Shown: positions 1 to 12,791 of the stretch, piece after piece | Numbering within the stretch: the stretch's first letter is position 1 | Layout: each line of letters opens with the position of its first letter | Assembly: GCA_946408295.1 (NCBI GenBank) | Contig: CAMJRT010000014.1 | Location: 1-13,400, forward strand | Direction of reading: 5' to 3' | Source of the DNA: an uncultured Bacteroidales bacterium | GTDB taxonomy: Bacteria > Bacteroidota > Bacteroidia > Bacteroidales > UBA932 | Length of the DNA: 13,400 nt | Position numbers and translations under genes: made by a program | Notes under the pieces: generated by a model | Database searches by the model: none | What the model saw: the letters and a program-made list of their open reading frames with translations, nothing else | Told to the model about the DNA's origin: nothing

Positions 1-705
1 GAGAGCGCCCTTATCCGCTTCGATATGTCCGAATTCAAGGAAGAACATTCCGTCGCCCTCCTCTACGGAGCGCCTCCGGGCTATGTGGGTTATGAAGAAG
101 GCGGTCTGCTGGTGAACAAGATTCGCCAGAACCCCTATTCCGTCGTCCTTTTCGACGAGATTGAGAAAGCCCACAAGTCGGTGTTCGACCTCTTCCTCCA
201 AATCCTGGACGAAGGCAAGTTGCACGACCGTCTGGGCCGCGTGGGTGATTTCTCCAACGCCCTCATCCTCTTCACCTCGAACATCGGCAGCAAGTTTGTC
301 GTCGAGCAGTTCAACAAGGGCGTCGTCCCGGGCAACAACGACCTGATGGACATTATGCAGGACTACTTCCGTCCCGAGTTCCTGGGCCGTCTGACCGAGA
401 TCGTCCCCTTCTCCCCGATTACCGAAGTGACGGTCACCAAGATTTTCGACGTCCACCTCAAAGGCCTGCTGAAACTCCTGCAAGAGCAGGAAATCACCCT
501 CGACATCGCCCCCGAGGTCAAGACGAAGATTGCGATGATGGGCTTCAACCCCGAGTACGGCGCCCGTCCCATCATCGGCATCATCCGCAAACAACTGCGC
601 AATCCCCTCTCCAAGATGATCATCTCCGGTCAGATCAAAGCCGGCGACACCGTCACGGTGGTCTTCGAGAAGGACGCTCCCGAATTTAAAGTCAACAAAA
701 AATAA
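1..705 (+). CDS. tssH: TssH (ClpV) sheath-recycling AAA+ ATPase, C-terminal part
   Basis: Cut by the window start; the reading frame is open from base 1. This is the second AAA+ module of a ClpB/ClpV-type disaggregase, which in a T6SS takes apart the contracted TssB/TssC sheath in the cytoplasm. Visible elements: the pore-loop motif GYVGYEEGG (about 79-105); Walker B FDE (151-159) followed by IEKAH; the sensor-1 asparagine in FTSNIGS (280-282); the arginine-finger segment FRPEFLGR (367-390); and the sensor-2 GAR (559-567) of the C-terminal lid. ClpB usually has FLNR where this has FLGR. All key residues in this part are intact, so the gene looks functional. It is called TssH rather than housekeeping ClpB because tssB starts 11 bases after its stop. 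The N-terminal domain that would settle this lies outside the window. Confidence 0.93.
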   Translation, partial: ESALIRFDMSEFKEEHSVALLYGAPPGYVGYEEGGLLVNKIRQNPYSVVLFDEIEKAHKSVFDLFLQILDEGKLHDRLGRVGDFSNALILFTSNIGSKFVVEQFNKGVVPGNNDLMDIMQDYFRPEFLGRLTEIVPFSPITEVTVTKIFDVHLKGLLKLLQEQEITLDIAPEVKTKIAMMGFNPEYGARPIIGIIRKQLRNPLSKMIISGQIKAGDTVTVVFEKDAPEFKVNKK

Positions 706-716
706 AACCTGCAATT

Positions 717-1181
717 ATGGCTATCAAAGAAAATTTCATTTCGATGGCTCCCGATGAGGAGTCGAATGCAAAGGTTAATCCCATTGACAACAACAAGACC
801 TTGATGATTGACCAGTACACCTCCGACGCCGAGCCCGGCAACCCGGAACTGGTCGAGGACATCCAGAACATCGACGACGCGTTCCGTCATTTCCAGCCCA
901 AGGTCGAGGTCGATTTCACCGACGAAAACGGAGAATCGGTCAACGAGACCCTTCATTTCAGTGAAATCCGTGACTTCGAGGCCCAGGGTGGCAAAGGGAA
1001 GCTGGTCGAGAACAGTGCCTTCCTCGGCGGTGTCAAGAAGAAAATCGACACCAGCGCCAAGATTCAGAAGAGCATCGAGCAAAGCCGCAAACTGCGCGAC
1101 ATTCTCAAAGACGCCGGCTCCCGCGAAGAACTCAAAGAAATGCTTCAAGCTATGCTTGATGAATTGGAATCCGCTAAATAA
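717..1181 (+). CDS. tssB: TssB (VipA-like) small sheath subunit
   Basis: A 154-residue protein of the Bacteroidetes TssB form, the small subunit of the contractile sheath. Residues about 60-85 carry the family pattern: a beta strand (KVEVDF), then LHFSEIRDFEAQGG, equivalent to the 'F.s..DF.P' element of TssB. The last 50 residues are helical and charged (RKLRDILKDAGSREELKEMLQAMLDEL in two pieces), where TssB packs against TssC. The first 55 residues are acidic and low in hydrophobics, probably flexible. It lies 11 bases after tssH and 8 bases before tssC, so the three are almost certainly co-transcribed and TssB and TssC made together. No Shine-Dalgarno site is obvious; the ATG is preceded by A/T-rich sequence, as is usual in Bacteroidetes. 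Confidence 0.9.
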   Translation: MAIKENFISMAPDEESNAKVNPIDNNKTLMIDQYTSDAEPGNPELVEDIQNIDDAFRHFQPKVEVDFTDENGESVNETLHFSEIRDFEAQGGKGKLVENSAFLGGVKKKIDTSAKIQKSIEQSRKLRDILKDAGSREELKEMLQAMLDELESAK

Positions 1182-1189
1182 TTACAACC

Positions 1190-2545
1190 ATGGCAGATAC
1201 TCAAATGCAAAAAAGCACCGCGGTTGAGCAGGCTCAAGGCGGCGCACAGGAACAGAAAAAAGACGTTTCGCAGCTTCTTTCCGCTTTCGGCGGCTTCAAC
1301 GCCGTCCGGGGTTTCCTTCCCGATGCGGACAATATGAACCCCGCCCACAAAGCGGCCAAGAACGTTTTCCTGACGGACAAACGTTTCAAAGACAAACGGG
1401 AGAACCTCATCGAAGACCTCAAAGGCTGGATTGAACTGTTGGACGAGAACCACGGCACCGCCTCCGAGATGGTGGACGCCTGCAAGGCCAAACAGGAGAC
1501 CTACCAGAAGGTCCTCGCCCAGGGTGTGACCGATGCGCTCTTCGCCACCCGTCAGTTGGAGCTGGCCTACCGCAACCTGGACAACTTCTTCAAGACCTGC
1601 GGCACCGACAAGGTCAAGAACCTCCGCGTCGTCAATGTCTACAAAGACGATATCGCCGATGCCGACTCCGGTTTCAGCGGTGAAGTGGAGAACCTGCTCC
1701 GCAACGGCTTCGACCGCCTCAGCCTGAAAGACTGCTACAGCCTTGTCGTCGTTCCCGGCAACGTGTTCCAGGACAAACCGACCCTGCTGCAATGGGCGAA
1801 AATAGCCTACAAATATAAAGTGATGCTCATCACCGACCACGCCGATGAATTCTCTTTCGACGACCTCTATGCCAACACCGAAGGCTACAAGGACTCCGAC
1901 GCCGAGCTGATGAACGTGATTATGACCGCCAACTGGATCGTCGGCCGCGAGAGCGAGAAACTCTCCGAGGACGAGAAAGAGAACGCCGCATTCTATGTCA
2001 CCCCTTCGGGCGCCTTGGCCGGCAAGCTCTATGACGAGAGCGCCAATATGGCCCAGGGTGCCGGCGGTAAGAAATATGGTACCCTCGACGGCGTGAAGGG
2101 CGTCAAACTCGACCTTCTTAAATCCGAAATCGCCGCCCTGATGGACAACCAGGTCATCCCTATGGTCTATTCGGAAGGCCGCGTGATGGCGTTCAACAAC
2201 ACCACCCTCTACAACGGCGACCTCACCGCGATGAAGGAATACCCCATCGTCCGCGTGTTCGACTGGGTGAAGAAAGTGCTGATGAACTTCGTTCACGAAG
2301 TCGCGCTGGAAAACTGGGATCCCTACAATTCACCGAAGAACCTGAAAGCGAAGATCCAGGCCTTCCTGAACGATTACAAGGGCTACGGCAACCTGTTCCA
2401 GAACTACGAGATCAAGGAGCCCACGCAAGATCCCGTCACCAAACGCATCACCTGCGACATCAGCCTCACGCCTTTCTACTCCGCCAAGAACTTTATCATC
2501 AAAGTTTCTGCCGATAAGAAAGAAAAAGGTGCAGAGATGGCATAA
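1190..2545 (+). CDS. tssC: TssC (VipB-like) large sheath subunit
   Basis: A 451-residue protein matching the Bacteroidetes TssC form (shorter than the roughly 490-500 residues of proteobacterial TssC). TssC builds the sheath with TssB. The first 22 residues are Gln/Lys rich and disordered-looking; the rest is a mixed alpha/beta protein without signal peptide or membrane segment, as expected for a cytoplasmic sheath. The middle section (about 180-270) contains the VVVPGNVF strand and the ITDHADEFSFDDL stretch. The C-terminal third holds TTLYNGDLTAMKEYPIVRVFDW and ends in a beta hairpin leading to an acidic/basic tail. The start was chosen as the ATG 8 bases after tssB. A 45-base A/T-rich gap follows before the first tube gene, the first real break after the sheath genes. 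Confidence 0.9.
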   Translation: MADTQMQKSTAVEQAQGGAQEQKKDVSQLLSAFGGFNAVRGFLPDADNMNPAHKAAKNVFLTDKRFKDKRENLIEDLKGWIELLDENHGTASEMVDACKAKQETYQKVLAQGVTDALFATRQLELAYRNLDNFFKTCGTDKVKNLRVVNVYKDDIADADSGFSGEVENLLRNGFDRLSLKDCYSLVVVPGNVFQDKPTLLQWAKIAYKYKVMLITDHADEFSFDDLYANTEGYKDSDAELMNVIMTANWIVGRESEKLSEDEKENAAFYVTPSGALAGKLYDESANMAQGAGGKKYGTLDGVKGVKLDLLKSEIAALMDNQVIPMVYSEGRVMAFNNTTLYNGDLTAMKEYPIVRVFDWVKKVLMNFVHEVALENWDPYNSPKNLKAKIQAFLNDYKGYGNLFQNYEIKEPTQDPVTKRITCDISLTPFYSAKNFIIKVSADKKEKGAEMA

Positions 2546-2590: not shown

Positions 2591-2983
2591 ATGGCAAAGA
2601 CACCTGTTTCAATGAAAATTGATGGCTACAAAGAAAGAGAAGTCCTGATGGTCACTTATTCCTTTGAGCAAGCCACCGACGTGGAAGGCCAGATGGCCGG
2701 CATCCCCCGTGGAGGTAAAATCACCGTCCGTGTCAAAGCGCTGAATGACGGCACCCCCGATTTGCTCGCCTGGATGGTGGAGCGCAACCTTCCCAAGAAC
2801 GGCGAAATCTCCTTCCTGGAGACCAAGACCGGCAAGAGTATGAAATCCATCAAGTTCACCAACGGTTACTGCGTGGACTTCGAGGAGAAGTGGGAAGACA
2901 AGATGGGTCACTTCGAGGAGATTGTCATTTCCTGCAAGAAAATCGAGTTCGGCTCGGTCGTTTACGAGAACGATTGGGCATAA
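2591..2983 (+). CDS. tssD: TssD/Hcp tube protein, copy 1
   Basis: A 130-residue tube protein of the Bacteroidetes TssD family, which stacks as hexameric rings inside the TssB/TssC sheath and is expelled on firing. Family landmarks: TYSFEQATDVEGQMAGIPRGG (in the first 40 residues), the LLAWMVE helix, FEEKWED and the closing ENDW. It is all-beta with one central helix, with no signal peptide, as for Hcp. It is followed 51 bases later by a close paralogue sharing SFEQATD/AFNQATD, AGIPRGGK, VRVKALNDG/VRVKAMNDG and EKWED; by eye roughly 45 percent of residues are the same. The upstream 45 bases contain no clear TAnnTTTG promoter box, so it is probably read from the upstream operon. Confidence 0.92.
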   Translation: MAKTPVSMKIDGYKEREVLMVTYSFEQATDVEGQMAGIPRGGKITVRVKALNDGTPDLLAWMVERNLPKNGEISFLETKTGKSMKSIKFTNGYCVDFEEKWEDKMGHFEEIVISCKKIEFGSVVYENDWA

Positions 2984-3034: not shown

Positions 3035-3433
3035 ATGGCAGACAATACAACCCCCGTACAACTTGCAGTCAAAGATTTTGAAGCAAGAGAAGTGATTTTG
3101 GTCGACTACGCTTTCAACCAGGCCACCGACCGTGAAGGACAGATCGCCGGCATTCCCCGTGGCGGCAAAGTCAAAGTCCGCGTGAAAGCGATGAACGACG
3201 GCAACAACCAGCTCCTCCAGTGGATGCTCGCGGCCAACGACCCGCGTGATATGAAGATCACCTTCTACAACACGGTGGACGGCTCCACGATGAAAGAAAT
3301 TGAAGGCAAAGGTTGCTACTGCGTCCACTACATCGAGAAATGGGAAGACGGAGAAGAGCACTACGAAGAAATCGAAATCGTGTGCCAGACCCTCAAGAAC
3401 GGACCTGTATCCTTCGACAATCCCTGGAAATAG
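3035..3433 (+). CDS. tssD: TssD/Hcp tube protein, copy 2
   Basis: A 132-residue paralogue of the preceding gene, apparently a tandem duplication that has diverged. It keeps every landmark: YAFNQATDREGQIAGIPRGG, LLQWML, YIEKWED and the terminal DNPW. Copies differ most in the central loop after the helix and in the C-terminal strand, regions that in Hcp face neighbouring rings or the lumen, so the two could make mixed tubes or tubes with different cargo preference (inference). The start at 3035 follows an A-rich leader (gattaaaaaagtaaagatt) without a strong Shine-Dalgarno. An 85-base gap with a long RNA hairpin follows the stop and may separate the abundant tube messages from the rest. Confidence 0.92.
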   Translation: MADNTTPVQLAVKDFEAREVILVDYAFNQATDREGQIAGIPRGGKVKVRVKAMNDGNNQLLQWMLAANDPRDMKITFYNTVDGSTMKEIEGKGCYCVHYIEKWEDGEEHYEEIEIVCQTLKNGPVSFDNPWK

Positions 3434-3518: not shown

Positions 3519-3938
3519 ATGGCAATGTCCGCAGTCCTGCAGTTCGGCGACAACGATGCAGGCGTGTATTCCAGCGAATATCCGGTCGTGAAATGTGACT
3601 GCCACTTCTCCCGGCACCACGACTTTTACAGCCCCGACTCGGATCCCAAATGCGAGCAAGTGATGATTATGGTCGTCGCTCCCGGTAAAGAGGACCTCGA
3701 GTTGATTGAATGGTATATTGACAACTCCAACCTCAGCGGACGCATCGTCTTCGATGTTTCCGATCAGGCGGGCAGCAAAGGCAACGATACCAAACGCGAG
3801 ATTCGTTTTGAAGATGCACGGTGCTATCTGATTGAGGAGAATTACGACATTTCCAACGGGAAACGCCGGCTCTTGAAGATGGAATTCCTCGCCGAATCCG
3901 TCCAAATTGACGACAACCGGTTTGATAGATTATATTGA
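3519..3938 (+). CDS. Divergent TssD/Hcp-like protein A
   Basis: A 139-residue all-beta protein with a short central helix and no signal peptide, resembling the Bacteroidetes TssD family but clearly diverged. Shared layout: an early strand then HFSRHHDFYSPDSDP where tube proteins have the YxFxQxTD..G segment; LELIEWYIDN in place of the LLxWM helix; then GRIVFDV, and a late strand LLKMEFLAESVQI. The final N.W of the tube proteins is replaced by NRFDRLY. Such a diverged ring-forming protein could be a tube initiator or baseplate adaptor, like the phage tail proteins that share the Hcp fold, or a second tube type. The next gene begins one base after its stop, so the two are translationally linked. 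The start at 3519 was chosen; a second ATG two codons on (3525) is also possible. Confidence 0.65.
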   Translation: MAMSAVLQFGDNDAGVYSSEYPVVKCDCHFSRHHDFYSPDSDPKCEQVMIMVVAPGKEDLELIEWYIDNSNLSGRIVFDVSDQAGSKGNDTKREIRFEDARCYLIEENYDISNGKRRLLKMEFLAESVQIDDNRFDRLY

Positions 3939-3939
3939 T

Positions 3940-4428
3940 ATGGCCGACCGTTTTTCAACCAACCTCAAAGCCATCCTCGTGATGGAGGATTTGAGCAGCG
4001 GAAGTTTCCAATTTTCGCAACAGGACTGCCTGACCATCCAAGACTTCCACTATTGCTGCAACCGGGGCAAGAACGACGAAGGCATCGTCGGCGGCGTGAC
4101 CGGTTCATCGATGATGAGTATGACGGTCCGTCTGCACGAACTGTCTGAAAACAAACGTTTTTACGACGGTCTCATCAGCCGCTCCCCCTCTCCGTTCACC
4201 ATCCTGTTCAATGCGGAGTTCGGCAACGACGGCAAATTGAAGGACTATGAAAATGCGATGACGGTCTTCGGCTACATCGTGGATGTGCAGGAACATTTCA
4301 GCACCTTGGTCAGCCAAGATAAAGCGAACGCCCCGATGAGCATCCACATCGACATCCAACTCACAAAGATGGTGTTCCACGGAAAAGACAGCAGCAAGAC
4401 CTTAGACATTATCCACACGGACGAATGA
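3940..4428 (+). CDS. Hcp/TssD-like protein B, probable tube or baseplate accessory
   Basis: A 162-residue protein, starting at the ATG one base after the preceding stop (an in-frame TTG at 3907 would overlap that gene and is less likely). No signal peptide or membrane segment. The core looks like the TssD beta-barrel arrangement: a strand pair around GSSMMSMTVRLHEL, a helix SENKRFYDGLISR where TssD has its LLxWM helix, then strands FTILFNAEF, FGYIVDVQEHF and SIHIDIQLTKMVFHG. Motifs of true tube proteins (QATD..G, EKWED, N.W) are missing, so membership is structural guesswork from the strand pattern. Its ATG-side coupling to protein A and its ATGA overlap with the next gene suggest fixed stoichiometry. 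An alternative is a small spike or baseplate subunit unrelated to Hcp. Confidence 0.5.
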   Translation: MADRFSTNLKAILVMEDLSSGSFQFSQQDCLTIQDFHYCCNRGKNDEGIVGGVTGSSMMSMTVRLHELSENKRFYDGLISRSPSPFTILFNAEFGNDGKLKDYENAMTVFGYIVDVQEHFSTLVSQDKANAPMSIHIDIQLTKMVFHGKDSSKTLDIIHTDE

Positions 4429-5273
4429 AAAAGTTCGCGCTCATACTGATGACGCTTACATTGGGCGTCCTCGGGCTGCAGGCCCAGGGACTGGCCATCG
4501 AGAAGTATGCCTCCGGCGCCAACGAAAAACAATGGGCGCTGCTGCGCATCGATCCGGCCAACGCCATCGTCACCCTCGACTCGACGGATGTACGGATGAT
4601 ACGGGGCGGAATCCTGCAAGCCTTTCTGCCGCTGGGCGAGCACAACTTCATCGTCGAATCCCCCTTCTACCATCGTTACGAATCGAAATTTACCCTCACG
4701 GACTCGCTGAAAGTGGAGCTGGATATCCGGCTGCAACCCGCGTTCGGCTTCCTGAGCGTCGTCACTCCGCTGAGAAACGGACTGATTTTCATAGACGGGC
4801 GCTTTTGTGGGAAAGGAATCACCCCCGTGAGCAAATATGAAGAAGGCTCGCACGACATCGTGATTCTTCGGGACAGTACGAAATATTATGACGCACCCTA
4901 CGTCGTGGAAAGCGGCAGCAAAAGCAAATTGGTCATTTCCGATTACACCCCTACGCCGCAATCCCGCGCCGAAGCCCAAGCCCTCCGCAATGCGGAAGCC
5001 GGTCTGTCCGGAGCCGTCCTGGATGCAGAAAGCGACGCCGGAGACGGAGAGAACCAATGGGGTATGATCAACCTTCACTCCAATGTGGCCGGAGCGACGG
5101 TGCTGGTCAACGGCATCGAATACGGACAGACACCCTGCGTCGTCAAAGGCCTCAAGCCAGCCGTCAAGTACCGCATCACCCTCCGCAAGGATGGTTGGCG
5201 TGAAAAGACGCGGATGGTCTCCGTCAAAAGCGGAGAAATGCCTGATATTGAAATCAAGATGAAAAAGAAATAA
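4425..5273 (+). CDS. Exported protein with three PEGA-type repeats
   Basis: A 282-residue protein with a clear signal peptide: MKKF, a hydrophobic core to about residue 18, then LQAQ as likely cleavage region. There is no lipobox cysteine, so it is probably periplasmic rather than lipid-anchored. Three repeats of the PEGA surface/cell-wall-associated domain are visible: about 37-91 (imperfect), 106-165 (FLSVVTP...GLIFIDGRFCGKGITP) and 211-279 (the most typical: INLHSNVAGATVLVNGIEYG, then QTPCVVKGL). A low-complexity stretch of Ala, Glu and Asp (about 180-208) links repeats 2 and 3. The ATG overlaps the previous stop (ATGA), tying it to the T6SS operon. Bacteroidetes T6SS lack TssJ/L/M and use other envelope proteins; this could be one that contacts peptidoglycan. 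That role is inferred, and I do not equate it with a named TssN-R protein. Confidence 0.75.
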   Translation: MKKFALILMTLTLGVLGLQAQGLAIEKYASGANEKQWALLRIDPANAIVTLDSTDVRMIRGGILQAFLPLGEHNFIVESPFYHRYESKFTLTDSLKVELDIRLQPAFGFLSVVTPLRNGLIFIDGRFCGKGITPVSKYEEGSHDIVILRDSTKYYDAPYVVESGSKSKLVISDYTPTPQSRAEAQALRNAEAGLSGAVLDAESDAGDGENQWGMINLHSNVAGATVLVNGIEYGQTPCVVKGLKPAVKYRITLRKDGWREKTRMVSVKSGEMPDIEIKMKKK

Positions 5274-5275
5274 GT

Positions 5276-7039
5276 ATGGACTACCTCTTCAAAGATTGGA
5301 AAGACGCGTTGGACAAATTCCAGGACTGCGTGGAAAAAGACCTCGCCGAGATTCGCAAGGAAAAAGAAAACATCCGGGCGATGAAGCGGGATTTCTTTGA
5401 CAAACTGGAAAAAGGTCAGTATATCCGCCATCCCGAACGCATTGTCATCTCCGCTCCCGAAATCGTCATCGGGAATGTGGACAAGAGCGGTCAGCTTATC
5501 GGCAATGGCGGCACCATCGTCCTGCGCGGTGTCCAGCTCAATATGGACGCCTCCGGCGAAAGCGGCGCCATCAACCAGCGCGCCACCCACATCCGCCAAC
5601 TGGCGGTCGACCCCGGTCCGGACGGATTGGATGCGGTGGTTCACCCCTCGTCTTCGGTGTCCACCAAGGCCCGCAACATCGCACTCGGCAGCGAAAATGC
5701 CGCCGATGCGTTTATCGAAGGGTTCCCCGGCGGTTTCTCCGGTATTCATCTAATCAGCGACAGCGATGTGGACATCCAAGCCAACAAAGGCAGTGAAACG
5801 CTGGCTAAGAAAATTGATTCCGGCAGCAAAGCGCTGAAACAGAAACAGGGCGATTTGAAGAAAGCCGTTTCCGACCGCAAGAAAGTGATGGATGATCTTT
5901 TCAAGCAGATGGAGGACACGATGAAAAAGAGCGAGAAACTCAACAAAAACATCGTGGACACCCGTTCCAATGTGCTGGATTTGCTGGATGTGGGCCGCGA
6001 AATCGATGTGCTCTCCCCCGCCTTCTACCAGGCCGTCAAGGACTATACCCGCTGCGTAGCCGAACTGGCCGAAGTAAACCGGCGCATCAAAGCGATGGAC
6101 GAAAGCAAGAAAGCGGTGGACAACGCCAAGAACGATTACAAGAAAGAATCCACGGGTGTAGGCCTGAACCTTCTCAGCGAGAACATCAACCTGAGCGTCG
6201 TGGACGGTGACGGCAACATCCGCGACAATGAGACGGCCGGCATCGACATACTCAGTCCGCACGTCAAGGTACATTCCACAACCCCGGACGGTTCGCTGAT
6301 TGACAAGAGCGATGTCAGCATCAACACGCAGACCATCAATCTGAGCACCGCCAGCACCAAGATGAAGGACGAGAAAAACGGCGAATCCCCGGCCGTAGGC
6401 GACATCAAGATTACCACCAAGACCCTCGACATCGAGTCGGTAGACTACGACATCAAGGACGGGAAGCCCGAAGAGAAAGCCCTCACCGACAAGAGCGGAA
6501 TCACCATCCGCACGCAGGCCCTCGATTTCCGCGCAACGGACAAGGAAGGCAAGGCGGTCGGACACGCCACCCTCAATGCGAAAGCCGTCGAACTCAAGTC
6601 GATGGATATCGACAAAGACAGCAAGGACGACAAACAGCTGGCGGCGGGCAGTACGATGCTCCTCGTCTCCGAGAAGATGTACGCAGGCGCCAAGGACGAC
6701 AAGAACAAGAGCAAACAAGTGCAACTTTCTTCCGAGAAAGTGGGCGTGTTCGCCAAGACCACGGCCGAGATTCAACAGGAAAAAGCGACCGTCCAGCTCG
6801 ACGGCGGCAATGTCAGCGTAGGCGGCAGCAAGACGAATGTCTTCGGCGAAACGACAGTCAACGGAAAAGCGGCGTTCAAGGCCGATGTCACGGCTCCGAA
6901 GGCCACCGTCGACAACCTCGAAGCCAAAACCTCCTTCAAATCGACCAACATCAGCGACGGCATCGCCGTTCCCGGCGCCCCGTCCACGGCCAGCCTCAGT
7001 CAGAAACTCAAAGCGGAAGACGCGCCTAAAGCGAAATAA
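5276..7039 (+). CDS. 587-residue coiled-coil and beta-repeat protein, probable spike-associated structural protein
   Basis: Not a family I recognise. Layout: residues 1-45 charged helix; 50-175 strand-rich and glycine-rich (IVISAPEIVIGNV, GGTIVLRGVQLNM), reminiscent of beta-helix rungs; 186-292 a long charged coiled coil (LKQKQGDLKKAVSDRKKVMD onwards); about 298-545 a run of eight to ten repeats of 20-32 residues, each a short hydrophobic strand pair such as VSINTQTINLST, DIKITTKTLDIES, GITIRTQALDFRA or VQLSSEKVGVFA, followed by a Lys/Asp-rich turn. The tail is Ala/Lys/Pro rich. No signal peptide. The alternating pattern resembles trimeric beta-helix needles of gp5/VgrG and tail fibres. It starts 2 bases after the PEGA gene and ends 2 bases before the PAAR-like tip gene. 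Inference: a long fibrous partner of the spike, or a cargo carrier. A very large non-enzymatic effector is the alternative. Confidence 0.6.
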   Translation: MDYLFKDWKDALDKFQDCVEKDLAEIRKEKENIRAMKRDFFDKLEKGQYIRHPERIVISAPEIVIGNVDKSGQLIGNGGTIVLRGVQLNMDASGESGAINQRATHIRQLAVDPGPDGLDAVVHPSSSVSTKARNIALGSENAADAFIEGFPGGFSGIHLISDSDVDIQANKGSETLAKKIDSGSKALKQKQGDLKKAVSDRKKVMDDLFKQMEDTMKKSEKLNKNIVDTRSNVLDLLDVGREIDVLSPAFYQAVKDYTRCVAELAEVNRRIKAMDESKKAVDNAKNDYKKESTGVGLNLLSENINLSVVDGDGNIRDNETAGIDILSPHVKVHSTTPDGSLIDKSDVSINTQTINLSTASTKMKDEKNGESPAVGDIKITTKTLDIESVDYDIKDGKPEEKALTDKSGITIRTQALDFRATDKEGKAVGHATLNAKAVELKSMDIDKDSKDDKQLAAGSTMLLVSEKMYAGAKDDKNKSKQVQLSSEKVGVFAKTTAEIQQEKATVQLDGGNVSVGGSKTNVFGETTVNGKAAFKADVTAPKATVDNLEAKTSFKSTNISDGIAVPGAPSTASLSQKLKAEDAPKAK

Positions 7040-7041
7040 CG

Positions 7042-7428
7042 ATGGGAAAGTTTGTCACCAACGGAGCCCTGCTCCAATGTTCTTTTGGGATGGCACCCTC
7101 CCCGCTGACCGTGCTGCCACCCCGGCCGATGGTCCAGAATATGCCGATGGCCAACATTATGGACTTTGCGCCGATGGTCAACATCAAACCGTTCGGGATG
7201 TGTCAGTCGATGTCCAATCCCCAGGTGGCGGCGGCCACGGCGGCGGCCTGCGGCGTGCTCACGCCGATGCCCTGCATCCCCGTCATCACGGCTCCCTGGG
7301 CCCCGGGCGGTCAGGAAAAAGTATGTATGATGCCGGCCCTTCTGGACAACTGCAAATGTATCTGCGCCTGGGGCGGAAACATTTCCATCAACTTCCCCGG
7401 CAACGGCGCGATGGCGACCGGAAAATAA
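7042..7428 (+). CDS. DUF4280 PAAR-like spike-tip protein
   Basis: A 128-residue protein of the DUF4280 (PAAR-like) family, thought to cap the VgrG spike with a sharp, metal-stabilised cone. It opens with the family's start, GKFVTNGALLQCSFG, and then alternates short strands with Pro/Met-rich turns. Nine cysteines are present (13, 54, 70, 78, 95, 104, 106, 108 among them), including the CKCIC cluster at 104-108, suitable for metal binding at the tip. It ends with the strand ISINFPGNG. There is no extra N- or C-terminal domain, so this is a plain tip and not a tip-effector fusion. It starts 2 bases after the beta-repeat gene and is followed by the 227-residue gene and VgrG, the expected neighbourhood for a spike tip. 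Confidence 0.85.
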   Translation: MGKFVTNGALLQCSFGMAPSPLTVLPPRPMVQNMPMANIMDFAPMVNIKPFGMCQSMSNPQVAAATAAACGVLTPMPCIPVITAPWAPGGQEKVCMMPALLDNCKCICAWGGNISINFPGNGAMATGK

Positions 7429-7439
7429 AAGAATAAATT

Positions 7440-8123
7440 ATGAGAGAGAACACCACCTTACTATTGGAAGAGATGCGGGGCAAAATGACCGCCTACGCCC
7501 TTCAGTTCAGTTATTACCTGAGCAACCTCTGCGTCAAGACCGATGCCGTCGCCCTGCTTTCCATCGAAGTGGAGATGGGTGGGCGCACGGTCCATCTGGA
7601 AGACGCCGCGGCGGCCGGCATCGAGGATGACACCCATTATTTCTTCTACCCCAAGGACAAGAAACTGCTCCCGATGCTGGAGCAAGGGATTCTGAAAGCC
7701 CATCCCGAATTCAAGCTCTCCCATCAGAAAGTGGAAGAGGCACCCGAAGAAAACGACGAACAGATTATCGCGGAAATCCCCCCGGTGGACAAGGACCGTC
7801 ACCAACAGTTGAAAGACGCCGTCGGTACGCTCGCCGACAACTGCAAATCCCAGATGGACGCCAACAGCCAGCTCTACAACGGGCGCATCGCTCTCACGCT
7901 GACCGGCGCGAGCGCGGATGACCAGAAACAGGCGAAAGACGCCGCCCAGGAAATCTGCGACTGGCACAACGACCTGGTCAAGCAATACCGGGAAAGCAAA
8001 GAAAAAGAAATCGACGATGCCTACGCCGCGTGGCAGGAAGGCAATGCGCAACAAAAGAGCCAGCAAAGCGAACAAGAGCAGGCTCAGGGCGAAGACACGA
8101 AGTTCAATATGAAAATGAGTTAG
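7440..8123 (+). CDS. Unknown protein between PAAR-like tip and VgrG
   Basis: A 227-residue cytoplasmic protein I do not recognise. Residues 1-100 look like a small alpha/beta domain (helix MTAYALQFSYYLSNLCV, strands ALLSIEVEMGGRTVHL and DTHYFFYP); residues 100-118 are acidic; 118-200 are helical with coiled-coil character (two helices joined around residue 165); the last 25 residues are a Gln/Glu/Lys low-complexity tail. It is acidic overall. It sits exactly where proteobacterial T6SS carry loading chaperones or adaptors (DUF4123, DUF1795, DUF2169), but shows none of their motifs. Inference: an adaptor that helps mount the tip or the VgrG extension. The VgrG ATG follows its stop after 2 bases, so both are co-translated. 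No signal peptide or membrane segment. Confidence 0.6.
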   Translation: MRENTTLLLEEMRGKMTAYALQFSYYLSNLCVKTDAVALLSIEVEMGGRTVHLEDAAAAGIEDDTHYFFYPKDKKLLPMLEQGILKAHPEFKLSHQKVEEAPEENDEQIIAEIPPVDKDRHQQLKDAVGTLADNCKSQMDANSQLYNGRIALTLTGASADDQKQAKDAAQEICDWHNDLVKQYRESKEKEIDDAYAAWQEGNAQQKSQQSEQEQAQGEDTKFNMKMS

Positions 8124-8125
8124 TT

Positions 8126-11100
8126 ATGGCGGAGATTAAAAATGTTTACTGTCTTGAACTGATTCCCAGCTCCGGCAGCAGCGTGCAGCTTTACCCCGGA
8201 AAGGTGGTTTCGGACATCACGATGGACAGCAAGAAATATTCATTGAGCCTCAACTCATTGGATTTCACGAAAAGGGTATACGAACCTTGCCACGTCACGG
8301 CGGATATCAAGATAGCGATGCTCGAAAACACCCAGTCGTTGCCGACGGTCGACAAGACGGTGAAGTACTTCGAAGATTTTAAAAGCCTCTCGCTCAAAAT
8401 CGTCAGCATCGAAATGTCCGGCCCGGGCGGACACACCATCAAATTTGTGAAAGAAGTTGGAACTCTCGGAACGAACTATATCATTATGGACACCCGCCCC
8501 ACCTATCGCACCGGCGGAGGCTCTACGGCGATGAGTGTGATTTTGGACATCTACAGTCCTGATTATTATTTCACGCGCAGGAGGTACAGCAAGACCTATA
8601 CGGGCGTGAAGCTGGGCGAACTGATCGATGCGGCCGTCACTTCTTTCGGTCTCGGCTCGAAGTTGACGGTGATGCACAAGTACCAGACCTTCCTCTCCTA
8701 CGAAAATTCACAAAAAAAGGATGAGAAAGGGAATCCCGTTCCGGAGGAACTCATCCAGCCCTATCTGGTCCAATACAACGAAAGCTTCTATGAACTGATT
8801 GCCCGCACCGCCAACCGTTGCGGCGAATGGTTGTATTTCGAGGATGGCCAGCTCTATCTGGGATGGAAAGCCAAGCGGGGAAGTTTGGGTGATACGACCT
8901 TGACGGCCGATCAGTTCCAGAGCGCCTCTTTCCGAAGCCGGTGTAAAGAAGAAACGACAGACGCCATCACTTCCGTCAGCCGAAACCCGATAGGGACGGA
9001 TGCGGCAACCGGAAGCTGGAACTACAATATGGAAATGTCCGCCGATGAATACCTCTATCCGTTGACGAAAGACCAATTCGACAGTGCTTCAGGCTGGCGG
9101 GACACCGAGAAGAGCCGTTTTTCAACCCTTGTCGCCCAACTGCTTTCCAGCGATTCCTTATACAAAGGTCTCATCGATTTCGGTTTCAATATCGCCAAAT
9201 CGGAGGCCACTTACGCCCAGTTTGCCGACAAGACCAACAAGAAGCAAAACAAAACCTATTTCCAGAATATCGCCGATGCGAAACTGGACCGTTACAACGA
9301 TGCAAAAGACAGCGCAACAACCGTCACTCCGTTCAGCACCAACCCCAGTTTCAAGCAGTTGGAAGCGAATTTCAAGAATAACGTCAATCTGGACTTGTAT
9401 AAGAACGTGAGAAACTTGCAGCTTGAATTGGACAGCAAGATTCTTGACTTGGACCTGGGAGGAAAACTGCAAGCGCTTCAAGTGGGCAGCATACTCAAAA
9501 TCCCCGCAATGTCGGGAGATAATTTGTATATGATTACGGAAGTCTGCGGAACAGATGAAACAGTGGGTGATACCCGCACCGAGTTGATGACCGCACGAGC
9601 CGTTCCCATTGATAAAGACAAAAAGGCGATGATTCCCCTCGCCCGCAAGCAGGACTATGTACCCCGGGGCGAACAGCAATACGGCTACATCGTCGATGCC
9701 GACGACCCGCTCCGCCTCAACCGGGTGCGCATCCGCTTCTCCTGGGAAGCTTCCAACAGCGAGGGTTCTCCCTGGGTGCGCATGGCGACACCTTACGCCA
9801 GCAAAGACGGGGCCGGTGTCTTCTACACCCCTCAGAAAGGGGACGAAGTCGTCTTGCAGTTTGCCGGAGGCAATATGGAAAGGCCGGTAGTGATTGGCTC
9901 TGTTTATAACAGCGCGAACACGCCCGCCTATGGCAAACACTTGTACGACTGGGTGTTCCGAACCCCCCACGGGCATGTTATCAAAACGACCGATTATTCG
10001 GATATTATGGCGTTCGTCGGCGGTCTCATACCCGCTATCGGTTTTGCCCGTTCATTCGCCCCGGCCCTCGTCAGTTGCCCCGTCGGCGAAGACAACGGAG
10101 CGAAGAAACTGTTGGGGGCGATGCAATTCACCGATGCATACGGCATATACAACGTATGCCTGGACTCCGCCAAGCGGCAGGTCGCTATCGCCTCCCCTTT
10201 CGGAGATGTCACGATTGATGCGTACACGGGCATCACCATCAGCGCCCCCAACGGAGATGTGAAGATTGTCGGCAAAAATGTGGAAATCGTAGCCAACAAC
10301 AACCTTACCCTCACCTCCGGACAGAACATCAAGAACAAATCCATCAACGCTCTGGCCAGAGGAAATATGAGCGCAGGAGATTTGGGCAAGGAAGTGCTCA
10401 AATCCATTTTCTACGACAACATTCTGAAAAAAGCGCTGGACCTCTCGCTGCTGAGAACCATCTTCGAGACATTTGTCAAGCCCATCGAGGGCACCCTGAC
10501 GCTCAAGTCGCATCGCTTTGTCAAGTTGGAAGCCGGCAAAGGCGCCGCGCACATTCCATCCTCCGCCTACAAACGTCCGAGCGAGGGAGCTTTCGGCAAA
10601 CGAGAAATCACCCTGCGCAAACTGACAAGCTCCATCGAAAGGCTGGACGGGTACATCGACGCCGTCGTTGATACATACCGGGCGAAGTTCAACAACATCC
10701 ACGAAAAGAGAGTCGATGTGATGGATGACATTGTCTTGATTGACAATTTTGTCATCAGCAGCGACGCTATTATCCAGCGCGGGCACGCAGACAATGTACG
10801 GGAATACAGTTTGGATGACATCACGAATGCCATTCCTGAGGCGGCACGGGCCCATATCTCGACCAGGCGTCGCAAAGCGTTACGGGACAAGATGAACGAG
10901 TTCATCAAACTCATCAACACTTTCGACAAGCGGGATGAGTTCAAGCCGTCCATACTGGGGGGCCTGACCAGCGAGTACTGCCTGCTGGACAAGATGGACA
11001 GCGTTTTCAAAGCGATTCCTAACAACGACGCTTTCAAAATTCTCAAGAAAGACACGAACGAAAAATTTGAGAATGAAGCGGCTCTCACGGAAGCGGAGAT

Positions 11101-11644
11101 TAACACGTTCAAGACGAAATACAAACGATTGTTCATCGTCAAACTGATTGAAGCCTGTATGCAGGATGCCGCCATCAAATTCGCGGACGCGACACAAGAT
11201 TTCAACCCCACTCCGGTCAGGAACAACGCCAAGCAAGGAAACGATATTCAGCCCGCCGATTGGAACAATCTTATCGCGGCCGTCATCCGCAGCGAAGAGG
11301 CAGACAACAAAGATGCCACGAAACAGGATCCGAACGGCTCGTTGGTGCAAATACTCGGAAAAATCCCCTTCGTCAAGGCTTCAGAACGCAACTTCTACAA
11401 AGCCGACAACTCGATGGGACGCATTCTGATTTCCGATCAGGAAGACGGAAATACCATCCAGATTGAAGAAGGAACGCTGGTCCGGCACGACAATACCGGA
11501 TACAGTCAGGTGCTCAAGCAGCTCAAGGAAATCTGCGGTGTCCCTGTTCAGGCGCCGGCCGACCCTCCTCAGGACAACGCCCAAGACCAGCACGTCGAGG
11601 AGAACAACGATGAGGATTGGGGTAATCTGGGGCCTCTTTTATAA
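8126..11644 (+). CDS. vgrG: VgrG (TssI) spike protein with large C-terminal extension
   Basis: 1172 residues from the ATG at 8126, which lies 2 bases after the previous stop; the frame is open further upstream but that part overlaps the preceding gene in another frame. Residues 1 to about 500 are the gp27-like/phage-GPD part (TYTGVKLGELIDAAVTSFGL, YNESFYELIARTANRCGEWLYFEDGQ in two pieces). Residues about 519-598 form the gp5-like OB domain (YGYIVDADDPLRLNRVRIRF, GDEVVLQFAGGNMERPVVIGS). About 690-735 is the beta-needle (GDVTIDAYTGITISAPNGDVKI). Between OB domain and needle lies a hydrophobic insertion (627-649). From about 740 on, some 430 residues are mainly helical and Lys/Asp/Asn rich, with no fold I recognise, ending in a short strand pair (RILISDQEDGNTIQIEEGT) and a Pro/Asp/Glu tail. 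Usual VgrG length in this group is about 600 residues. The extension may be an effector or a docking arm. Confidence 0.88.
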   Translation: MAEIKNVYCLELIPSSGSSVQLYPGKVVSDITMDSKKYSLSLNSLDFTKRVYEPCHVTADIKIAMLENTQSLPTVDKTVKYFEDFKSLSLKIVSIEMSGPGGHTIKFVKEVGTLGTNYIIMDTRPTYRTGGGSTAMSVILDIYSPDYYFTRRRYSKTYTGVKLGELIDAAVTSFGLGSKLTVMHKYQTFLSYENSQKKDEKGNPVPEELIQPYLVQYNESFYELIARTANRCGEWLYFEDGQLYLGWKAKRGSLGDTTLTADQFQSASFRSRCKEETTDAITSVSRNPIGTDAATGSWNYNMEMSADEYLYPLTKDQFDSASGWRDTEKSRFSTLVAQLLSSDSLYKGLIDFGFNIAKSEATYAQFADKTNKKQNKTYFQNIADAKLDRYNDAKDSATTVTPFSTNPSFKQLEANFKNNVNLDLYKNVRNLQLELDSKILDLDLGGKLQALQVGSILKIPAMSGDNLYMITEVCGTDETVGDTRTELMTARAVPIDKDKKAMIPLARKQDYVPRGEQQYGYIVDADDPLRLNRVRIRFSWEASNSEGSPWVRMATPYASKDGAGVFYTPQKGDEVVLQFAGGNMERPVVIGSVYNSANTPAYGKHLYDWVFRTPHGHVIKTTDYSDIMAFVGGLIPAIGFARSFAPALVSCPVGEDNGAKKLLGAMQFTDAYGIYNVCLDSAKRQVAIASPFGDVTIDAYTGITISAPNGDVKIVGKNVEIVANNNLTLTSGQNIKNKSINALARGNMSAGDLGKEVLKSIFYDNILKKALDLSLLRTIFETFVKPIEGTLTLKSHRFVKLEAGKGAAHIPSSAYKRPSEGAFGKREITLRKLTSSIERLDGYIDAVVDTYRAKFNNIHEKRVDVMDDIVLIDNFVISSDAIIQRGHADNVREYSLDDITNAIPEAARAHISTRRRKALRDKMNEFIKLINTFDKRDEFKPSILGGLTSEYCLLDKMDSVFKAIPNNDAFKILKKDTNEKFENEAALTEAEINTFKTKYKRLFIVKLIEACMQDAAIKFADATQDFNPTPVRNNAKQGNDIQPADWNNLIAAVIRSEEADNKDATKQDPNGSLVQILGKIPFVKASERNFYKADNSMGRILISDQEDGNTIQIEEGTLVRHDNTGYSQVLKQLKEICGVPVQAPADPPQDNAQDQHVEENNDEDWGNLGPLL

Positions 11645-12791
11645 ATTGAACTTGTTTTCCTTCATACCCTCCACTCGCGCAGCCGATGCCCGTATGATGG
11701 TCATCGGCTGCGGCGCGTTGGGCAACGAAGTGCTCAAGAATCTCGCATTGCTGGGAATACGCCATCTCACACTGGTCGATTTCGACCGGGTCGAGCCGGA
11801 CAATCTCTGCAAGAGCGTACTTTTTTCGGCGGAGGATGCCGCCCGGCGACGTTTCAAGGTGGATGCCGCCGCCGACGCTTTGCTGCGGTTAAATCCGGCG
11901 TTGCAGATCGAGCGTCATTACGGAGATGCGGTTTATGATCTGGGACTGGGCATTTTCGCCCGGCAGGATGTGGTCATCGGCTGCGTGGACAGCCGTTGGG
12001 CCCGCTACGGCATCAACCGCAACTGTATGCGGACGGGGGTTCCCTGGGTGGACGGCGGCATCGGCCAACTGGAAGGCACGGCCCGCGTCTTCCGTCCGGG
12101 CGAGAACTGCTATGCCTGCAACCTCGGGACGGAGGGACTGAAGGAACTCCGCCTGCGTCTCCCCTGCCCGGGCATCGTGCGCCGCAACCTGGCGGCGGGC
12201 AAGGCGGCCACCAGCGTTCTTTCCGCCTCCATCATCGCCGCCGTACAGGTGCAGGAAGCCCTCAAGCTGCTCTGCCCCGAAGCCCTTGCGGAAGGGCGCG
12301 TACGCTCGCTTTGCGGCGCCATTTTCCACTACGAAGGCGAACAGTTGTCCGGGCGGACGGCCTCCTTCCAAGCCTGGGACGAGGATTGCCCCTGCCACGA
12401 AAGATGGATGCCCGACGGCACGCTGCCGGTGGATGTGGAACAGACGAGCGTAGAACAGTTGCTGGCGCTCGCCCGTCGTGTAAGCGGAGAGGACGAAATG
12501 ACTTTGCTGCTGCGTGACGACTGCTTTGTCGATGTGGTGGAAGACCGACGCGACGGAACCCGTTGCGAGGTGATGCGCCCGGGGCGGAAAGTCGAAGCGT
12601 TTCTGGAGGCCCATCCCGCCCTGCAAGGGGCTGAGAGCGCCCGGTTTTACCAAAATGAGTGGAAAGAGGTCTCAAAAATTTTCCCATATCAAAAACTTTC
12701 ACTATCTTCGCTCGGAATACCGCAATGTGATTTCCTGCGTTTTCGCGGAAAGAAAAAGGACTATTGTTATGAGTTACGCAAACCTCTCTGA
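11610..12791 (+). CDS. E1-like (ThiF/MoeB-fold) adenylating enzyme in the T6SS locus
   Basis: 393 residues from the ATG at 11610, which overlaps the VgrG 3' end by 35 bases and has AGGAG six to seven bases upstream; an in-frame TTG at 11646 just after the VgrG stop is a weaker alternative. E1-like signature, in order: nucleotide loop GCGALG (33-38), VDFDRVEPDNL (aspartates 57 and 59, asparagine 65), a Lys at 83 before VDAAADALLRLNP, CVDSRWAR with the adenylation aspartate 127, CxxC (167/170), a Cys at 186 in the region that carries the catalytic Cys in ThiF/MoeB, and a second metal pair CPC (260/262). ATP and metal sites therefore look intact. MoeB/ThiF are about 250 residues; the extra 120 at the C terminus are unassigned. 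Enzymes of this fold activate the C terminus of a ubiquitin-like or other protein. No such partner gene is visible here. Role in secretion unknown. Confidence 0.82.
   Translation: MRIGVIWGLFYKLNLFSFIPSTRAADARMMVIGCGALGNEVLKNLALLGIRHLTLVDFDRVEPDNLCKSVLFSAEDAARRRFKVDAAADALLRLNPALQIERHYGDAVYDLGLGIFARQDVVIGCVDSRWARYGINRNCMRTGVPWVDGGIGQLEGTARVFRPGENCYACNLGTEGLKELRLRLPCPGIVRRNLAAGKAATSVLSASIIAAVQVQEALKLLCPEALAEGRVRSLCGAIFHYEGEQLSGRTASFQAWDEDCPCHERWMPDGTLPVDVEQTSVEQLLALARRVSGEDEMTLLLRDDCFVDVVEDRRDGTRCEVMRPGRKVEAFLEAHPALQGAESARFYQNEWKEVSKIFPYQKLSLSSLGIPQCDFLRFRGKKKDYCYELRKPL
12679..12710 (+). promoter_or_regulatory. Possible Bacteroidetes promoter inside the 3' end of the E1-like gene
   Basis: TATCTTCG at 12703-12710 is one base off the Bacteroidetes -7 box TAnnTTTG. 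It is preceded, after 19 bases, by a T-rich -33-like element (ttttc, 12679-12683). The stretch 12660-12768 is much more A/T rich than the surrounding coding sequence and looks like an intergenic leader. A start point near 12717 would give a leader of about 50 bases before the ATG at 12769. Moderate similarity only; the -33 element is poor. Confidence 0.35.
12731..12751 (+). promoter_or_regulatory. Small hairpin in the leader of the last gene
   Basis: tttcc (12731-12735) pairs with ggaaa (12747-12751), and inside it gcg (12737-12739) with cgc (12744-12746), with one bulged T and a TTTT loop. The AAGGA at 12756-12760 lies just 3' of it, 8 bases before the ATG at 12769, so the structure could affect translation start. 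It also lies within the E1-like reading frame. Short, so it may be chance. Confidence 0.25.

What the first reader, a model, noticed from the sequence alone, without database searches (positions are those of the whole stretch)
11610..12791. E1-like adenylating enzyme translationally overlapped with a VgrG
A ThiF/MoeB-fold enzyme with intact nucleotide, aspartate and metal-binding residues is encoded in the middle of T6SS structural genes, its start lying inside the VgrG coding end. Enzymes of this superfamily activate protein C termini for conjugation or sulphur transfer. I know of no standard T6SS part with this fold, and no thiamine, molybdopterin or sulphur-carrier gene is nearby. It could modify the VgrG extension, load or tag cargo, or itself be cargo.
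Basis: partly seen in the sequence, partly recalled or inferred. Interest (0 to 1): 0.72.

Follow-up and report, generated by a model that had tools for sequence, protein, structure and literature searches.

The report
Ubiquitin-like tagging enzyme inside T6SS
A gene inside a bacterial harpoon-like weapon cluster (a type VI secretion system) encodes the first enzyme of what looks like a ubiquitin-like tagging pathway, whose tag, second enzyme and probable third enzyme lie in the same cluster in relatives; I know of no injection machine reported to carry such a pathway.

The parts
11646..12791 (+).
   Evidence: PF00899 E=5.6e-42; invariant E1 residues in 22 sequences; start shared with L001, L002, L004
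12769..13400 (+). TssG-like baseplate gene, cut by window end; shares 23 nt with the E1 ORF; directly next downstream of E1 in 19 of 20 relatives
   Evidence: tblastn; its homologue in classical locus L026 hits PF06996 TssG weakly, E=0.0037, below cut-off
8123..11644 (+). VgrG spike with long C-terminal extension; upstream neighbour of E1 in 3 of 21 relatives, those close to the window
   Evidence: PF04717 E=3.3e-19; gene order
7440..8123 (+). 227-aa protein with ribosome-recycling-factor-like domain; nearest recognised upstream gene of E1 in 14 of 21 relatives
   Evidence: PF01765 E=1.9e-12; gene order
7042..7428 (+). DUF4280, PAAR-like (PAAR link recalled)
   Evidence: PF14107 E=2e-30
5276..7039 (+). 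587-aa T6SS-locus protein of unknown role, found in 16 of 21 relatives (several loci are cut short)
   Evidence: no Pfam hit above cut-off
4425..5273 (+). PEGA-domain protein
   Evidence: PF08308 E=2.8e-20
3907..4428 (+). 173-aa T6SS-locus protein, no Pfam hit
3519..3938 (+). TssD/Hcp 3
   Evidence: PF17642 E=2.6e-11
3035..3433 (+). TssD/Hcp 2
   Evidence: PF17642 E=1.9e-22
2591..2983 (+). TssD/Hcp 1
   Evidence: PF17642 E=1.5e-30
1190..2545 (+). TssC sheath
   Evidence: PF17541 E=7.5e-104
717..1181 (+). TssB-like (named by position before TssC; no Pfam hit)
25..705 (+). C-terminal part of ClpV-like AAA+ ATPase
   Evidence: PF07724, PF10431

Best explanation
The window gene is the E1 of a ubiquitin-like protein conjugation cassette that has become a built-in part of one subtype of Bacteroidales type VI secretion system. 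Proposed working: the E1 adenylates the C-terminal glycine of the Ubl encoded just after TssF, forms a thioester (candidate: invariant Cys174), and hands the Ubl to the E2 cysteine (in the HPNI...GxVC[IL]N motif). The membrane protein with periplasmic VWA-like, cytoplasmic RING-H2-like and C-terminal FHA-like regions would act as E3 and bring the charged E2 to substrates at the membrane/baseplate docking site, with the FHA part and a neighbouring SpoIIE phosphatase gating it by phosphorylation. In divergent relatives a JAMM peptidase with a predicted membrane segment would trim or remove the Ubl. Shown: gene content, linkage, sequence motifs and predicted folds of Ubl and E2. Inferred: catalytic activity, topology, the E1-E2-Ubl-RING pairing, and that the substrates are parts or cargo of the secretion machine.
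Against: No biochemistry. Ubl matches to ubiquitin families are below Pfam cut-offs and no Foldseek hit is under E=0.001; the top VIA rows are talin F0, with EccD scaffold domains close by. E2 Pfam hits are below cut-off in the loci I scanned, and L007's E2 has none; the PDB profile match is only E=0.014. RING hits are below cut-off, and L063 and L065 show no RING pattern. No JAB was found in the window-type loci, nor in 20 of their 21 genomes (G015 has one, in a second cassette). The cassette also occurs where no TssC was found: G331 (eCIS), G425, and G037 (SrfB/Virul_Fac), so it is not obligatorily a T6SS part. 28 of 32 TssC-positive genomes lack the E2 at E<=0.01. The window itself ends before the Ubl and E2 genes.
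Confidence: 0.85

Rival explanations
1. The Ubl is a non-covalent scaffold, like the ubiquitin-fold cytoplasmic domain of TssN or EccD; the E1 and E2 are remnants or act elsewhere, and the Ubl only helps dock the baseplate.
For: TssN's cytoplasmic domain is described as EccD-like/ubiquitin-like and TssN binds TssK (PMC10781749, passages); EccD domains rank high for the Ubl model; no TssN/TssO Pfam hit in the nine L007 genes, while classical L026 has both.
Against: The C-terminal Gly is kept in all 20 loci and 120 of 120 listed homologues; E1 and E2 motif residues are kept in the same loci; divergent relatives add a JAMM peptidase.
Confidence: 0.1
2. Sulfur-carrier chemistry: the E1 activates the Ubl to a thiocarboxylate for a cofactor or tRNA thiolation, as ThiF/MoeB/UbaA do.
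For: Fold shared with ThiF/MoeB.
Against: Scores far below ThiF/MoeB/UbaA cut-offs; an E2-like protein with HPN and Cys next to the Ubl; no cofactor-gene family among the L007 genes scanned.
Confidence: 0.03
3. A phage-defence ubiquitin-like system (CBASS/Bil/Bub type) that merely sits in the T6SS island.
For: PADLOC hits to E1-E2 proteins (best 51.7 bits) and BilD (24.1 bits); BubCD among the PDB hits (7.6e-12); JAB in divergent cassettes; nSTAND1 gene beside the cassette in G331.
Against: In 20 of 20 relatives with flank the E1 and the Ubl/E2 enclose the TssG-TssK-TssE-TssF run; the E1 is not fused to an E2; no PADLOC hit for the E2 (two tested) or Ubl (one tested).
Confidence: 0.08
4. E1, E2 and Ubl are injected cargo that tags proteins in the recipient cell.
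For: T6SSs do inject enzymes (established knowledge); the cassette also sits in a cluster with an eCIS and an eCIS_core protein.
Against: The Ubl is among the better conserved proteins of the locus (median 72% identity), unlike typical effectors; RING and JAB proteins have hydrophobic, probably transmembrane segments.
Confidence: 0.06

Closest known systems
Predicted bacterial E1-E2-RING-JAB-YukD-like Ubl operons (Burroughs, Iyer, Aravind 2011; recalled, paper not held; related 2006 survey PMC1779556, passages)
   Same: E1, E2 with Cys, JAB, RING and a Ubl whose best Pfam neighbour in the distant L062 is YukD (26.0 bits, cut-off 27)
   Different: Here, in 20 of 20 window-type loci with flank, E1 and Ubl-E2 enclose the T6SS baseplate genes; no JAB was found in that subtype; the RING pattern lies in a VWA-TM-RING-TM-FHA protein. 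I recall no T6SS in that work but could not check it
Bil, Bub and CBASS Cap2 ubiquitin-like systems (recalled; PDB 8tyz 'bacterial E1-E2-Ubl complex' and 'Citrobacter BubCD' seen as hits; PMC10097602 search listing only)
   Same: E1, E2 and Ubl set
   Different: BubCD and the PADLOC 'E1-E2' entries are by name fusions, here separate genes; the setting is a T6SS locus
T6SS subtype iii of Bacteroidota (PMC10781749, PMC4714493; passages)
   Same: TssB-, TssC, TssD, VgrG, TssE, TssK, TssF/TssG-like and ClpV-like genes
   Different: No TssN/TssO Pfam hit in L007 genes; lower TssC scores (94-171 as -log10 E against 222 or more for the four classical ones); added E1, E2, Ubl, RING-like genes
UBA5-UFC1-UFM1 (recalled)
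   Same: Compact E1 and single-Gly tail; UBA5 is among the PDB hits (E=1.2e-18)
   Different: The E2 here has the HPN motif; bacterial; separate evolutionary setting

Membership tests
Ubl-conjugation cassette (E1-E2-Ubl with RING/JAB) | E1 adenylation domain with ATP, acidic and metal residues | tested here: met
   PF00899; invariant residues in 22 sequences
Ubl-conjugation cassette (E1-E2-Ubl with RING/JAB) | Catalytic E1 cysteine able to form a thioester | tested here: inconclusive
   Cys174 is invariant, 16 residues after the CxxC; 111 of 120 listed homologues match CYACNL plus that Cys; role inferred
Ubl-conjugation cassette (E1-E2-Ubl with RING/JAB) | Ubl with ubiquitin fold and C-terminal Gly | tested here: met
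   AF2 model and PDB matches; Gly in 20/20 loci and 120/120 listed homologues. Sequence hits below Pfam cut-off
Ubl-conjugation cassette (E1-E2-Ubl with RING/JAB) | E2 fold with catalytic-type Cys | tested here: met
Ubl-conjugation cassette (E1-E2-Ubl with RING/JAB) | RING E3 | tested here: inconclusive
   Zn-ligand pattern in 21/21 distinct loci covering it: 19 window-type, L022, L024; also L059, L060 and a variant in L061; Pfam RING below cut-off; not recognised in L063, L065
Ubl-conjugation cassette (E1-E2-Ubl with RING/JAB) | JAB/JAMM peptidase | tested here: not met
   For the window subtype: none in L001-L021. Present in the 5 other cassettes found without it (G199, G067, G037, G331, G425) and in two loci found through it (L059, L060); above Pfam cut-off in L022 and L061
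Ubl-conjugation cassette (E1-E2-Ubl with RING/JAB) | Covalent conjugation activity | not testable with these tools
   needs biochemistry
ThiF/MoeB/UbaA cofactor E1 | Reaches equivalog cut-off; cofactor genes nearby | tested here: not met
   99.7 of 275, 91.4 of 266, 90.4 of 450 bits; T6SS context in 21/21 relatives
Bil / Bub / CBASS | E1 or E1-E2 fusion of those families; defence gene set | tested here: inconclusive
   Not fused to an E2; PADLOC E1-E2 51.7 bits and BilD 24.1 bits over parts of the models, no hit for E2 or Ubl; the PADLOC table shows no cut-off
T6SS subtype iii | TssC PF17541, TssD PF17642 and baseplate genes | tested here: met
T6SS subtype iii | TssNQOPR membrane complex | tested here: inconclusive
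   No TssN or TssO hit in the L007 genes scanned, while the same library finds both in classical L026; homologues may be too divergent

The most novel reading that the evidence does not exclude
A subtype of type VI secretion system, and at least one extracellular contractile injection system, carries its own ubiquitin-like pathway (E1, E2, Ubl, a RING-type E3 in the T6SS forms and, in some, a JAMM deconjugase), which tags parts or cargo of the injection machine at the membrane docking site and so controls its assembly, loading or turnover.
Probability: 0.5. Interest if true: 0.92.

Novelty: new variant of a known kind. Interest (0 to 1): 0.82.

Why it matters
To my knowledge (recalled) ubiquitin-like conjugation in bacteria is so far mostly tied to phage defence or sulfur chemistry. 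A cassette placed around the baseplate genes of a T6SS, with a Ubl conserved nearly as strongly as the sheath genes (72% against 77% median identity), would mean that a contractile weapon is controlled by eukaryote-like protein tagging, and would give a defined, testable set of candidate substrates in one locus. It also marks out a subtype of Bacteroidales T6SS (4 of 8 TssC-positive genomes in an order-level sample) that differs from the classical loci seen here.

Tried and rejected
VgrG-E1 overlap: rejected. Cofactor E1: rejected. JAB in window-type loci: sought by motif, by a two-sequence profile and in whole genomes; only G015 has one, in a second cassette; the Pfam genome search missed the G067 gene, so it is insensitive. 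Plasmid and phage collections: no match for L007's E2. First TssC tree had an artefact row for L002 (two frames under one name) and a very long row L051; redone with the name fixed, L051 dropped, and G615 and G457 taken from longer loci: 34 rows, the Ubl label needs two changes, with Ubl-less G615 beside the main Ubl clade and Ubl-bearing G067 next to the classical systems, so one origin is neither shown nor excluded. In one search the L022 E2 was read in a wrong frame; the right reading is. Weak Ubl hits in G070 and G201 (E about 0.005) were treated as chance and not followed up; the same profile would also have missed distant Ubls such as those of G037, G331 and G425 (12 bits or no hit), so one search is a lower bound. 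My notebook count of 23 RING rows is wrong; it is 22 rows, 21 distinct. Literature: searches in an open-access library listed no paper whose title or abstract start joins a T6SS with an E1/E2/Ubl set; the lists were capped (for instance 20 of 491, 20 of 49), I looked into four papers only, by passages (PMC10781749, PMC4714493, PMC1779556, PMC3482391), and subscription papers and preprints are not covered.

Full report
1. The observation. The ORF at 11610-12791 is real and carries a strong ThiF/E1 domain (PF00899, E=5.6e-42). No cofactor equivalog model is reached. The start inside VgrG is doubtful: close relatives L001, L002 and L004 have an in-frame stop a few codons upstream of a TTG that matches window 11646, just after the VgrG stop, and an identical database protein has 381 residues. 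The E1 ORF shares 23 nt with the gene after it (ATG 12769, ORF end 12791), and in L007 4 nt.

2. Neighbourhood. A scan of genome contigs with patterns from the window protein, which finds close relatives only, gave 21 loci (50-90% identity); all 21 lie beside T6SS genes. The nearest recognised upstream gene varies (RRF-like 14, VgrG 3, PEGA 2, PAAR 1, none 1), but in 19 of the 20 loci with flank the next gene downstream is the same TssG-like gene; in L003 an RRF-like gene and VgrG intervene. After it come TssK-, TssE- and TssF-like genes in 20 of 20. TssK and TssE have Pfam hits in L007; TssF is named by its homology to a classical-locus protein that hits PF05947 below cut-off.

5. RING and others. 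Further downstream lies a protein with a predicted transmembrane segment, then C-x2-C-x(12-15)-C-x-H-x2-H-x2-C-x(5-9)-C-x(5-7)-C, then further hydrophobic segments and an FHA-like end. The zinc pattern is present in 21 of 21 distinct loci that cover it. Pfam RING scores stay below cut-off; the FHA region hits PF00498 below cut-off and T6SS TagH weakly in L022, and FHA and VWA are above cut-off in L063. A SpoIIE phosphatase with a Cache sensor follows in L027, the G007 locus.

6. How specific is the link? In 247 genomes of the order of G007 (the genome of L007, a Prevotella) TssC (PF17541) was found in 8, the Ubl at E<1e-5 in 4 and the E2 in 5. All 4 Ubl genomes are among the 8 and among the 5; Ubl and TssC lie on one contig within about 10 kb in each. 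In three the E2 and E1 are on that contig too; in G263 the E1 is on another contig, followed by TssG-, TssK-, TssE- and TssF-like genes. The fifth E2 genome, G037, has the cassette beside SrfB and Virul_Fac genes and no TssC hit. In 395 genomes of the phylum TssC was in 25 and the E2 in 3: G007, plus G331 and G425, which have no TssC hit. In G331 the cassette lies about 20 kb from a contractile sheath, tube, spike and gp25 set, with PAAR, eCIS_core and nSTAND1 genes between; G425 has the same local gene order by appearance, but its eCIS genes were not tested. Of 32 TssC-positive genomes in both samples, 4 have the E2.

7. A fuller cassette in divergent relatives. L022 (G199), L024 (G067), L061 (G037), L063 (G331) and L065 (G425) encode a JAMM motif H[ST]HP-x6-S-x2-D; a search with the L022 protein then led to two more, L059 (a second cassette of G015, beside T6SS baseplate genes) and L060 (a small G263 contig). 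JAB is above the Pfam cut-off in L022 and L061. In L059 the order is Ubl, E2, two genes, JAB, RING, E1, TssG-like, TssK, TssE, TssF. In L062/L063 it is E1, Ubl, E2, JAB and the VWA-FHA protein, without a recognisable RING pattern. Two of the distant Ubls carry residues after the Gly (L061 IIAG-YLVV, L064 VPG-GK), which would need trimming, and both have a JAB; but five other Ubls from JAB-bearing genomes (L022, L023, L024, L059, L062) end exactly at Gly, like the window-type ones.

8. Conservation. Against L005-L021, median identity is TssD1 85%, TssC 77%, Ubl 72%, E2 53%, E1 52%, TssK 35%, VgrG 28% (n from 4 to 17 for these). The Ubl behaves like a core part, not like a diversifying effector (inference).

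9. Mechanism. E1 activation, transfer to the E2, and RING-guided tagging near the membrane complex is the simplest reading. Steps beyond gene content, motifs and fold are inference. Substrates are unknown.

10. Known and new. TssN's cytoplasmic domain has been called ubiquitin-like and TssN binds the baseplate protein TssK (PMC10781749, passages); that is a scaffold domain, not this Ubl. The 2006 survey (PMC1779556, passages) lists bacterial E1/E2/Ubl/JAB operons. RING-containing ones were, as I recall, described in 2011 (not held). The searches named in Tried and rejected, in open-access papers and with capped lists, showed no report of such a cassette in a T6SS. I therefore rate it a new variant of a known kind: known cassette type, new and striking setting.

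Noticed in passing
window 7440-8123: A ribosome-recycling-factor-like domain (PF01765, E=1.9e-12) in a T6SS gene, nearest recognised upstream gene of E1 in 14 of 21 relatives; its role in a T6SS is unexplained.
   Followed up: partly
L059 (G015 contig C81): Genome G015 carries a second, JAB-containing Ubl cassette beside T6SS baseplate genes, besides the one in L015.
   Followed up: partly
L062, L063, L067 (G331); L064, L065 (G425): The E1-Ubl-E2-JAB-VWA/FHA cassette; in G331 about 20 kb from eCIS sheath, tube, spike and gp25 genes, with nSTAND1, PAAR and eCIS_core genes between.
   Followed up: partly
L061, L066 (G037 contig C685): The cassette in a genome without a TssC hit, beside SrfB (PF07520) and Virul_Fac (PF10139) genes; a 357-aa protein at L066:6811-7884 opens with nearly the same residues as the Ubl there.
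   Followed up: no
L027:4004-6202 (-): Cache-SpoIIE-HATPase protein directly after the RING/FHA gene, suggesting phospho-control of this T6SS.
   Followed up: no
window 8123-11644: VgrG of 1173 aa with a long C-terminal stretch (after about residue 735) without a Pfam hit.
   Followed up: no
L054, L055 (G615): T6SS locus whose TssC groups beside the Ubl-type clade but with no E1/E2/Ubl found in 40 kb; possible loss or pre-cassette state.
   Followed up: partly
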